Positions 29,963 through 42,952 of a stretch of 58,535 bases of DNA are shown here, piece by piece; position 1 is the first letter of the stretch; the number at the start of each line of letters is the position of its first letter. The DNA lies in contig NZ_CAIUXT010000229.1 of the NCBI RefSeq assembly GCF_903903185.1, positions 1 through 58,535 on the forward strand, in the 5' to 3' direction. The notes below the pieces were generated by a model. The model made no database searches, was not told the DNA's origin, and saw only the letters and a list, made by a program, of their open reading frames with translations. Origin of the DNA: an uncultured Rhodoblastus sp. Lineage in GTDB: Bacteria > Pseudomonadota > Alphaproteobacteria > Rhizobiales > Beijerinckiaceae. The position numbers and the translations under genes were made by a program.

Positions 29963-30030
29963 GGTTTATCTGAAGTAACGTCGTTCGGACGAGATGGCGA
30001 GGGTTCTTCCCTCAAATCGATGTTCTGAAC

Positions 30031-30105
30031 CATTGGAGCGGGCCGTTGCCCGCTCCAGGCATTTTTGGAAACATTGGAGCGGGCTCTTGCCCGCTCCAGG
30101 CATTT
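30031..30105. repeat. Two tandem hairpin repeats after cytochrome c copy 1
   Basis: Two 34-base units (30031-30064 and 30072-30105) contain CATTGGAGCGGGC, a four-base loop and GCCCGCTCCAGGCATTT. Each forms a perfect 10-bp stem TGGAGCGGGC/GCCCGCTCCA. The units differ only in the loop (CGTT, TCTT). They may act as terminator or mRNA-stabilising elements. Confidence 0.75.
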
Positions 30106-32224: not shown

Positions 32225-32268
32225 CCCGCCCGCATCGAGCGGCGTCACGACAAGTTGTCGCGCCTCGC

Positions 32269-32375
32269 GCATGTTCCCGAAAAGTTGCAGACTTTTCGGA
32301 AAAGGACATGCGCTTGAATAAGACGCATGTTCCCGAAAAGTTGCAGACTTTTCGGAAAAGGACATGCGCTTGAAT
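32269..32375. repeat. Paired 51-bp hairpin repeats (family also at 50083-50178)
   Basis: Two identical 51-bp units (32269-32319 and 32325-32375) are separated by five bases. Each has an inner 9-bp stem CCGAAAAGT/ACTTTTCGG around TGCAG and an outer arm GCATGT/ACATGC. They lie between the cache-like gene and the end of the MoxR operon. Confidence 0.85.
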
Positions 32376-40799: not shown

Positions 40800-41297
40800 T
40801 TGGCCCGTTGGAATATCGCGGCGATCGCAGCCGTTGCGGTCGCATTGTCCGGATGGAGCGCCGGGGCCGATCCATGGCGTTCCTGCCATAATTCGCGTTT
40901 TGGCGCGACCGCCGATTATCCGTCGGGATGGGAAATGCAGACGGCCCCGGAAAACAAGGACGGGCGCGTGTTCGTCTCGCCCGACGGCCGGGCGCGCGTC
41001 ACCATTTCCGGAATTTTCGCGCTGGAATCCCGCGCCAGGGAATTTGCCGAAAAAGCCGAGCCTCTCGATGGTGCGACAGTGACCTTCAGTGCTCGTAAAG
41101 GCGACGGGATCGTCATGTCGGGCTTGCGCGGCGCGACTGTTTTCTACCGAAAGGCGCTGCTTTCGTGCAGCGGCGCCGTCTGGAGCAATGTTCAGATCGA
41201 ATATCCGCTCGAAGACAAGGCGAAATACGATTCCCTTGTCGCCCAAATCGCCGCTTCGCTCAAGTCCGGAAGCGGCTACGATGCGCAATGCAAATGA
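40800..41297 (+). CDS. Secreted protein of unknown function (TTG start)
   Basis: 165 residues if begun at TTG 40800, which has a textbook ribosome site GGAGGAAAGC directly before it. This start also opens a signal peptide (IAAIAAVAVALSGWSAGA). A much longer open frame exists upstream but overlaps the NUDIX gene out of phase and makes no sense as protein. The mature part (YPSGWEMQTAPENKDGRVFVSPDGRARVTISG) recalls small PsbP-like/DUF-type periplasmic proteins with a central beta sheet. Cysteines are in WRSCHNS, LLSCSG and AQCK. Family uncertain. Confidence 0.75.
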   Translation: MARWNIAAIAAVAVALSGWSAGADPWRSCHNSRFGATADYPSGWEMQTAPENKDGRVFVSPDGRARVTISGIFALESRAREFAEKAEPLDGATVTFSARKGDGIVMSGLRGATVFYRKALLSCSGAVWSNVQIEYPLEDKAKYDSLVAQIAASLKSGSGYDAQCK

Positions 41298-41375
41298 ACG
41301 GGGCGGCATTTGCCGCGCGGCGTCCGCTCGGTCGGGTCAGGTCGAACCGGACGCAAATCTGGAGTAAGTTTGGCA

Positions 41376-41639
41376 ATGGCGCGCTCGCTTCTGGAAACCC
41401 TCGGCCTGTTCGCCTTGCCTTTTTTGCTTTATGCGCTTTTTCTGGGGTTTCGGGCGCGTCATCCGCTGGTGGTCGAGCACTGGTCGCGCGGCGCCGTGTC
41501 CTGGCTGGCGCTGGCCGGGCTGTTGCTGGCGATAGCCGGCTTTCTCGTCGCCGGCTTTTTCGACGGCCGCAGCCGGGGCGCCTATATTCCCGCTCATATG
41601 GATGAGAATGGCCGTCTCGCGCCGGGACACTTCCAGTGA
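41376..41639 (+). CDS. DUF6111 membrane protein
   Basis: 87-residue protein with two membrane helices (LFALPFLLYALFLGFRA; WLALAGLLLAIAGFLVAGFF) joined by a short loop, and a tail RGAYIPAHMDENGRLAPGHFQ. It matches DUF6111, often found just before cca in Hyphomicrobiales. GGAG lies before the ATG. Its last four codons and stop are made by the first unit of a 23-bp tandem repeat that runs into cca. Confidence 0.83.
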   Translation: MARSLLETLGLFALPFLLYALFLGFRARHPLVVEHWSRGAVSWLALAGLLLAIAGFLVAGFFDGRSRGAYIPAHMDENGRLAPGHFQ

Positions 41640-41718
41640 AGTTGGGGAGACACTTCCAGTGAAATTGGAGAGACACTTCCAGTGAAGTTGGAGAGGCGCT
41701 TCCAGTGACTTCGGAAAA
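41627..41718 (+). repeat. Four tandem 23-bp repeats linking DUF6111 and cca
   Basis: Units at 41627, 41650, 41673 and 41696 follow the pattern ACACTTCCAGTGAAGTTGG plus RGAG (the fourth is diverged: GCGCTTCCAGTGACTTCGG plus AAAA). Each has a GTGA and an SD-like GGAG. Unit 1 contains the DUF6111 stop, unit 4 the GTG start of cca. Between them, three GTG-started frames of eight codons each end at the TGA that overlaps the next GTG. Confidence 0.9.
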
Positions 41719-42952
41719 TGCGCAGAAAGCCATTGAACGACTGCTCGCCCACGCCCCGCTGCAAAAATTGTTCAGGGCGCTTTCGGGCGAGGAAATCCGC
41801 GTCGTCGGCGGCGCGGTGCGCAACGCCCTGATCGGAGCGGAAATCGCCGATATCGACATCGCCGCTGCGGCCCTGCCGCAGGTGATCGCCGAAAAGGCCG
41901 GCAAGGCCGGGCTGCGCGTCGTCCCGACCGGCGTCGAACATGGCACCCTGACGCTGGTGTTCGACGGAACCCATTTCGAAGTGACTTCTTTGCGCGAGGA
42001 TGTGGAGACGGACGGGAGGCGGGCGAAAGTGCGGTTCGGCCGCGATTTCGCCGCCGACGCCTTGCGCCGCGATTTCACCGTCAACGCGCTTTCGATCGAC
42101 GCCGACGGCAGGCTCTACGATTACACCGGCGGGCTCGAAGATCTGGCGGCGCGGCGCATCCGCTTCATCGGCGCGCCGGAAAAGCGCATCGCCGAGGATT
42201 TCCTGCGCATCCTGCGCTTTTTCCGATTTTCCGCGTCCTTTGGCGAAGGGCCGCTCGACGCCGCCGGGTTGGAAGCCTGCATCGCGCTGCGCGCCGGCCT
42301 CGCCCATCTGTCGCGCGAAAGGCTCGGCGCGGAGACGTTGAAAATCTTCGCGGCGAAGCGCGCCGCTTTCGTCATCCAGGCCATGTCCGGGGCCGGATTG
42401 CTGAGCTATCTGCATGTCGCGCCCTGGCCGGTTCGGCTGTGGCGCCTCGCGGCGATTCTGGCGGCGCGCAAGACCGCCGACCCGCTGCTGGCGCTGGCTT
42501 CGCTCGCCCTGCACAGCGAAGCCGATGCGGAAATTCTGGGCGAAGGCCTGCGGCTGTCCAAGCTCCAGAAGCGACGGCTCGCCGACATGGCGAGGGTCTA
42601 CGCCGTCTGGCATGGTTTGGCGGCTCCGCCAGAACCCGGCTTGTTGCGCGAGGCTTTGTTCCTGCATGGCGCCCCAGCGGCGCGCGACGCTCTGGCGCTG
42701 GTCGAGGCCGAAAGCAGCGTTGCGCCCGACGACCCCGGCTTTGCGCGCGCCGACGCATTTTTGCGCGACACGCCAAGACCCAAAGCCCCTTTCGCCGCCT
42801 CGGACCTGTTGGCGCGCGGGCTGGCGCCGGGCGCGGAACTGGGCGAAGCGCTGAAGCGCCTGCAAGCCTTGTGGATTCGCGCCGGTTTCCCGCAGGAGCC
42901 GCAAATCGTGGCGAACCTGATCGACGAAGCGAGAGCAAGCATTGGCGGATAG
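41705..42952 (+). CDS. cca: CCA tRNA nucleotidyltransferase
   Basis: 415-residue class II nucleotidyltransferase that adds or repairs the 3' CCA of tRNA. Head domain with VVGGAVRNALIGAEIADIDIA (GG and DxD metal site), VEHGTLTLVFDGTHFEVTSLR and DALRRDFTVNALSID; neck domain with ASARRIRFIGAPEKRIAEDFLRILRFFRF-type sequence. It starts at GTG 41705 within the last unit of a 23-bp repeat; the repeat's GGAGAG is the probable ribosome site. Translation is likely coupled to DUF6111 through the repeat ladder. Confidence 0.94.
   Translation: MTSENAQKAIERLLAHAPLQKLFRALSGEEIRVVGGAVRNALIGAEIADIDIAAAALPQVIAEKAGKAGLRVVPTGVEHGTLTLVFDGTHFEVTSLREDVETDGRRAKVRFGRDFAADALRRDFTVNALSIDADGRLYDYTGGLEDLAARRIRFIGAPEKRIAEDFLRILRFFRFSASFGEGPLDAAGLEACIALRAGLAHLSRERLGAETLKIFAAKRAAFVIQAMSGAGLLSYLHVAPWPVRLWRLAAILAARKTADPLLALASLALHSEADAEILGEGLRLSKLQKRRLADMARVYAVWHGLAAPPEPGLLREALFLHGAPAARDALALVEAESSVAPDDPGFARADAFLRDTPRPKAPFAASDLLARGLAPGAELGEALKRLQALWIRAGFPQEPQIVANLIDEARASIGG

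What the first reader, a model, noticed from the sequence alone, without database searches (positions are those of the whole stretch)
41627..41718. Tandem 23-bp repeat makes a relay of overlapping GTGA stop-starts between DUF6111 and cca
Four 23-bp units join two genes. The DUF6111 stop in unit 1 overlaps a GTG. From it a frame of eight codons (V-K-L-G-R-H-F-Q) runs to a TGA overlapping the next GTG; this repeats twice more (VKLERHFQ, VKLERRFQ), and the fourth GTG is the cca start. Each unit has its own GGAG about nine bases before the next GTG. Expansion of a single GTGA junction by tandem duplication would give this. Ribosomes could re-initiate three times before cca, so repeat number could tune cca expression. 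The arrangement is seen directly; the regulatory role is inferred.
Basis: partly seen in the sequence, partly recalled or inferred. Interest (0 to 1): 0.72.

Follow-up and report, generated by a model that had tools for sequence, protein, structure and literature searches.

The report
Repeated stop-start gene junction before cca
In a Rhodoblastus bacterium the four-base overlap joining two genes has been copied in tandem into a chain of tiny reading frames, most likely a tolerated duplication that can keep the second gene's translation linked to the first rather than a proven expression dial.

Summary
GTGA occurs at 41636, 41659, 41682 and 41705 with a 23-bp period; DUF6111 stops in the first, three eight-codon frames (VKLGRHFQ, VKLERHFQ, VKLERRFQ) run GTGA to GTGA, and cca starts in the fourth. 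It is far above chance (TRF score 138; maximum 78 in 100 random windows). Of 140 distinct DUF6111-cca junctions read, 116 have one NTGA in frame with cca, so this is an old -4 overlap expanded by three units. Rhodoblastus sphagnicola has an independent 14-bp, two-link relay and G140 a 14-bp, one-link relay; two more genera have 17-nt links with weak or no repeat. Two 15-bp duplications instead lengthen cca in frame. Because 23 = 3x8-1, each copy rebuilds the overlap automatically.

The regulatory claim is unsupported. One-link relays also occur elsewhere in relatives and are not enriched over a phase control (8 vs 5); unit divergence does not reject neutrality; no second genome of the species was seen. 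Best reading: a tolerated tandem duplication that leaves termination-reinitiation coupling possible. New variant of a known kind.

The parts
41376..41639 (+). DUF6111 gene, stop TGA at 41637-41639 inside the first GTGA
   Evidence: PF19606 E 1.7e-14; 11 of 11 genomes of the genus have a match
41626..41708 (+). 23-bp tandem array, 3.6 copies
   Evidence: TRF score 138; maximum 78 in 100 Markov windows
41636..41662 (+). minicistron 1 GTG-VKLGRHFQ-TGA
   Evidence: read; chain checked
41659..41685 (+). minicistron 2 GTG-VKLERHFQ-TGA
   Evidence: read; chain checked
41682..41708 (+). minicistron 3 GTG-VKLERRFQ-TGA
   Evidence: read; chain checked
41646..41649 (+). GGAG, 9 nt before the GTG at 41659
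   Evidence: position; anti-SD duplex -7.2 kcal/mol, 2 of 116 single junctions as strong
41667..41670 (+). GGAG, 11 nt before the GTG at 41682
   Evidence: position; anti-SD duplex -6.4, 8 of 116 single junctions as strong
41690..41693 (+). GGAG, 11 nt before the cca GTG at 41705
   Evidence: position; anti-SD duplex -6.4, 8 of 116 single junctions as strong
41705..42952 (+). cca (CCA tRNA nucleotidyltransferase / poly(A) polymerase family), GTG start in the fourth GTGA
   Evidence: PF01743 E 6.2e-26; best NCBIfam match CCA tRNA nucleotidyltransferase, 158.5 bits, below its cut-off of 290; the N-terminal model made from relatives matches from three codons after this GTG

Best explanation
The junction is an ancestral 4-nt stop-start overlap (NTGA) between DUF6111 and cca that was tandemly duplicated to four copies of a 23-bp segment whose larger part matches the DUF6111 3' end. 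Because 23 = 3x8-1, each copy puts a stop in the frame opened by the previous GTG and overlaps it with the next GTG. Ribosomes that end DUF6111 can therefore, in principle, terminate and reinitiate in succession through three eight-codon frames and then enter cca, so that coupling can survive the insertion. The array is best seen as a tolerated, near-neutral duplication. Each added unit also carries a GGAG that may help reinitiation or allow fresh initiation at cca. Shown: sequence, phase, ancestral state, parallel cases. Inferred: ribosome use, coupling, near-neutrality.
For: NTGA in frame with cca in 116 of 140 distinct junctions; the three genomes with the most similar DUF6111 (76-77% identity) have one GTGA. 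The junction is 72 nt longer than theirs, i.e. three units plus one codon (170 vs 98 nt to GGAVR). Independent duplications in relay phase: R. sphagnicola, 14 bp, 13 of 14 identical in the first pair, two links; G140, 14 bp, 12 of 14, one link. Further one-link relays: L028/L031 and L115 (17 nt) and L268 (14 nt). Two other duplications (15 bp in L023; 15 bp three times in L169) keep cca in frame. In the two genera with two relay species each, the peptide changes while the overlap stays: MRPGRP/VRLGPP and MRDFE/VSALA. Passages of PMC10666635: native E. coli pairs lost 40-80% of reinitiation at +14 nt and most or all at +38 nt, so the 65-nt gap here would be expected to uncouple cca without the relay.
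Against: No ribosome or expression data. L066, L070 and L075 (one genus) have an out-of-phase cca start about 45 nt downstream, and L027 and L041 start at a TTG 4 nt downstream, so an overlap is not obligatory. L028/L031 and L268 show no recognisable repeat (7, 5 of 17 and 6 of 14 identical), so those links need not come from duplication. Five duplications of five in relay phase or in frame is weak on its own ((2/3)^5, about 0.13, by hand). A 19-bp (3n+1) duplication spanning GTGA lies at the end of a LysR-like gene in G004, though the frames after it were not shown to be genes. Other studies summarised in the review PMC12548453 (passages) found coupling over longer gaps, so the relay may not be needed.
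Confidence: 0.6

Rival explanations
1. Repeat number is a tunable dial: slippage changes the number of links and each termination-reinitiation step multiplies cca output by an efficiency, so cells vary in cca level.
For: Link number differs between species of the genus: 3 here, 2 in R. sphagnicola, 0 in the other nine. The GGAG-bearing units pair with anti-SD better than most single junctions.
Against: No within-species variation could be tested. Units differ by 2, 3 and 3 of 23 bases, not the near-identity expected of a rapidly changing array. One-link relays are not enriched in 1.6 Mb of relatives (8 vs 5). cca is a housekeeping gene with no known reason to vary (recalled).
Confidence: 0.12
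2. The relay is incidental: cca is initiated afresh at its own GGAG-GTG, on the operon mRNA or on a separate transcript, and the eight-codon frames are by-products of a repeat.
For: The GGAG before the cca GTG pairs better with anti-SD than in most single junctions (8 of 116 as strong). A promoter-like site lies just upstream of the array. Any 3n-1 repeat carrying GTGA without other stops would show these frames.
Against: Three of nine single-junction sisters already reach -6.0 kcal/mol, so the SD gain is small, and the start is GTG. Where the DUF6111-stop NTG is out of frame with cca, the displaced cca start sits on the stop of the minicistron in 5 of 10 of the directly read junctions; adding two found by patterns that select for a second NTGA makes 7 of 12. 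The background rate makes this modest evidence.
Confidence: 0.22
3. The duplication impaired coupling and lowers cca expression; the array is mildly harmful and on its way to loss.
For: Each extra termination-reinitiation step should cost ribosomes (inference).
Against: Unit divergence of roughly 10% suggests the array is not brand new, and the relay is intact.
Confidence: 0.06

Closest known systems
Translational coupling by termination-reinitiation at NTGA (-4 nt) overlaps (PMC6728339, PMC10666635, review PMC12548453; passages seen)
   Same: Same NTGA geometry, adjacent co-directed genes, often an SD-like site in the upstream frame.
   Different: In the passages seen the unit is one overlap between two genes; here three extra overlaps and eight-codon frames are interposed by a tandem repeat. 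The word starts relay, repeat and minicistron do not occur in PMC12548453, nor tandem in PMC10666635 and PMC6728339.
Minigenes upstream of a co-operonic gene, e.g. mg1/mg2 in axe-txe (PMC8708949, passages)
   Same: Very short frames just upstream of a gene act in cis; stop-start distance matters; an altered frame with a stop overlapping the start also supported expression.
   Different: A two-codon minigene ending 15 nt before the gene, not a repeated GTGA chain.
Synthetic short nonsense ORFs that boost a downstream gene (PMC13255528, passages)
   Same: A short coupled frame with an internal RBS beside its stop; [quoted passage not shown]
   Different: Synthetic, a single ORF, strong RBS.
Repeat-number control of translation by repeats in the SD-start spacer (recalled; one search listed related papers, none read)
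   Same: Repeat number could set translation rate.
   Different: There the repeat changes SD spacing; here every unit carries its own stop and start.

Membership tests
Termination-reinitiation coupled gene pair (NTGA) | Downstream start overlaps the stop of an upstream frame by 4 nt | tested here: met
   GTGA at 41705 overlaps the stop of minicistron 3; chain back to the DUF6111 stop. It is met through minicistrons; cca no longer overlaps DUF6111 itself (65-nt gap).
Termination-reinitiation coupled gene pair (NTGA) | The pair and its overlap are conserved in relatives | tested here: met
   116 of 140 distinct junctions
Termination-reinitiation coupled gene pair (NTGA) | Translation of the downstream gene depends on the upstream frame | not testable with these tools
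   needs reporters or ribosome profiling
Contingency / VNTR expression dial | Repeat number varies among close strains | not testable with these tools
   one genome per species held; link number differs between species
Contingency / VNTR expression dial | Repeat number changes expression | not testable with these tools
   no expression data
Contingency / VNTR expression dial | Near-identical units, as in an actively changing array | tested here: inconclusive
   units differ by 2, 3 and 3 of 23 bases

The most novel reading that the evidence does not exclude
Stop-start overlaps are self-propagating under duplication: a 3n-1 tandem copy rebuilds the overlap, so operon junctions can grow chains of translated minicistrons that act as mutable attenuators of the downstream gene, with DUF6111-cca in this family a recurrent site (five lineages with one to three links).
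Probability: 0.12. Interest if true: 0.65.

Novelty: new variant of a known kind. Interest (0 to 1): 0.38.

Why it matters
An insertion between coupled genes should uncouple them. Here is a clean natural case where the phase of a duplication (3n-1) rebuilds the overlap in each copy, with independent in-phase cases in relatives. If ribosomes use it, it gives natural constructs with one to three links for measuring how often a bacterial ribosome can terminate and reinitiate in succession on very short frames.

Tried and rejected
A regulatory RNA: the Rfam search of 41000-42300 gave one sub-threshold hit, inside cca, and the fold of the array is ordinary (z -0.68, 46 of 200 shuffles fold as well). 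A cca promoter inside the array: none in a consensus scan, though one promoter-like site lies just upstream. A dispersed repeat: one match in the genome. Special enrichment of relays: a relaxed scan of 1.6 Mb of three relatives plus the window gave 29 relay candidates (two in the window, four of the 29 two-link chains without a repeat) against 146 direct junctions; that scan missed the DUF6111-cca array itself because DUF6111 fails its codon-position G+C rule, so it is not complete. A stricter scan of the 1.6 Mb gave 8 relay-phase against 5 control-phase starts (ATG/GTG starts, NTGA on both sides); the three other settings gave 5 vs 4, 3 vs 2 and 4 vs 3. With any fourth base after the downstream start the relay phase exceeded the control (25 vs 10, p 0.008, same call), which is not specific to relays. 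No row for the 1.6 Mb was an in-phase repeat of three or more copies. L066, L070 and L075 first looked like relays, but cca is in another frame there. L167 has two close ATGA but no repeat. Selection on the array: no significant signal.

Limits: cca starts are inferred, not mapped. Of the 24 junctions not counted among the 116, L056 and L063 gave no cca N-terminal hit and L146 only a weak one about 300 nt downstream. L023, an in-frame duplication, is counted among the 116. The pattern searches need a PG-[HRQ]-type DUF6111 tail, and I did not check how many genomes of the third group have such a tail. Paper searches: (listings capped in 30, 33 and 52); none of the papers listed described tandem-duplicated stop-start overlaps in its title or the start of its abstract; DUF6111 gave 0 papers.

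Full report
What is there. The window is a whole contig (C229) of a 4.96 Mb draft genome. DUF6111 (41376-41639) is followed by cca (41705-42952). Between them lie four GTGA at 41636, 41659, 41682 and 41705 in a 23-bp tandem array. The DUF6111 stop is in the first GTGA; each GTG opens an eight-codon frame that stops in the next GTGA; the fourth GTG is the only ATG/GTG/TTG start in the cca frame between an upstream stop and a TTG 63 nt into the gene. A model of cca N-termini made from relatives matches from three codons after it. The array is well above chance (score 138 against a maximum of 78 in 100 first-order Markov windows) and matches once in the genome.

Origin. All 11 genomes of the genus (the own one included) have a DUF6111 match, and 111 of 119 sampled family genomes do. 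I read 154 loci that collapse to 140 distinct junctions (counted). The base before the stop gives ATGA in 73, GTGA in 51, TTGA in 5, CTGA in 9 and a TAA or TAG stop in 2. In 116 of 140 the NTG is in frame with cca and open. In nine of the ten other genomes of the genus the GGAVR motif begins 98-101 nt after the DUF6111 stop; in R. sphagnicola 126 nt, here 170 nt, that is 69 bp (three units) plus one codon more than in the closest sisters. Fourteen bases of the unit, GACACTTCCAGTGA, match the end of DUF6111; the source of the other nine is unclear.

Parallel cases. R. sphagnicola has ATGA three times at 14-nt steps, giving MSHCQ* and MSPSR* before cca (sequence; the second frame read by eye). 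G140, another genus, has a 14-bp duplication (12 of 14 identical) giving MRDFE* before cca; its congener G155 has a 14-nt link VSALA* without a visible repeat. L028 and L031, of one genus, have 17-nt links MRPGRP* and VRLGPP* without a visible repeat; L115 has MRSRFR* with 12 of 17 bases repeated. All these steps are 3n-1. Two further duplications, 15 bp in G090 and 15 bp three times in G440 of another family of the order, keep the starts in frame and lengthen the cca N-terminus. I found no clear 3n+1 tandem duplication at this junction, but five of five is weak evidence; a displaced out-of-phase start exists in one genus (L066, L070, L075), and L027 and L041 start at a TTG 4 nt downstream.

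How the pattern searches were made. A DUF6111-tail pattern followed by a second NARTGA matched in 9 of 397 family genomes, 4 of them at this junction. It matched in 7 of 397 order genomes (20 of these had been searched before), 3 of them at DUF6111-cca, the window included. It matched in 6 of 248 genomes of a third group, a family of the same order that overlaps the second sample in part; none of the six loci has a DUF6111 match. A looser second half matched in 29 of 397 family genomes; 21 are DUF6111-cca junctions, of which 7 are relays, 11 are direct in-frame junctions and 3 are out of frame without a relay. The patterns miss other DUF6111 tails.

Background. In 1.6 Mb of three relatives, short minicistrons between genes with NTGA on both sides are not rare: 29 candidates, four of them two-link, against 146 direct junctions by a relaxed rule that included the window (the rule missed the array itself), and 8 in relay phase against 5 in the control phase by a stricter rule. 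With any fourth base after the start the relay phase exceeded the control (25 vs 10), a bias not specific to relays. So a one-link relay is not by itself a sign of function. What is unusual is a tandem chain of three links: no row of the repeat scan of the 1.6 Mb is an in-phase array of three or more copies. A trpE/trpG-like junction in G019 carries a 12-bp in-frame duplication, and a LysR-like gene end in G004 a 19-bp (3n+1) one, so duplication across NTGA also happens elsewhere and in other phases.

Mechanism. In passages of PMC10666635, native E. coli pairs lost 40-80% of reinitiation at +14 nt and most or all at +38 nt, and the last 15 nt of the upstream gene sufficed for coupling; the review PMC12548453 (passages) notes other studies with longer tolerated gaps. 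The 65-nt gap between the DUF6111 stop and cca would therefore be expected to uncouple cca unless the chain of overlaps carries ribosomes across. In R. sphagnicola and G140 the sites are weak (-1.9 to -2.9), so a strong SD is not a general feature of the relays. PMC13255528 (passages) found synthetic short frames boosting a downstream gene when not shorter than 8-10 codons; PMC8708949 (passages) found natural minigenes acting in cis. These make the relay plausible; neither, in the passages seen, tests a chain.

Regulation. Nothing here shows tuning. Units differ by 2, 3 and 3 of 23 bases, and random substitution of 5 or 6 bases leaves the relay intact in 27% or 21% of trials, so intactness is not significant evidence of selection. 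The fold is ordinary. No second genome of the species was available.

Verdict. Observation confirmed; the duplication origin is supported and extended to independent cases; the relay is plausible; the regulatory dial is unproven and less likely than a tolerated duplication.

Noticed in passing
G019:C1 about 81804 (L220): trpE/trpG-like ATGA junction (names by eye from the translations) with a 12-bp tandem duplication that adds four codons in frame to the downstream start.
   Followed up: partly
G009:C1 about 270047 (L209): 17-bp tandem duplication that makes a six-codon frame overlapping by ATGA the start of a Rieske-like ORF (by eye); the 43-codon upstream frame may not be a gene.
   Followed up: partly
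G004:C1, second 400-kb stretch, position 361823 minus strand (within L236-L255): 19-bp duplication (3n+1) spanning GTGA at the end of a LysR-like gene (by eye); what follows was not shown to be a gene.
   Followed up: partly
window 41560-41588: Promoter-like site inside DUF6111, just upstream of the array (9 of 12 matches; 0.2 expected).
   Followed up: no
window 32268-32375: Perfect 56-bp tandem duplication (1.9 copies) containing a hairpin-like CCGAAAAGT...ACTTTTCGG sequence.
   Followed up: no
window 30027-30105: 41-bp tandem duplication (1.9 copies, 92% matches) with a palindromic GAGCGGGC...GCCCGCTC core.
   Followed up: no
L066, L070, L075: One genus in which cca starts about 45 nt after the DUF6111 stop and out of phase, after a five-codon frame ending in NTGA; how cca is started there is unclear.
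   Followed up: partly
L169 (G440): A 15-bp repeat, three times, gives cca an in-frame repeated N-terminus MNPAGVNPAGMSP with a start codon in each unit.
   Followed up: partly
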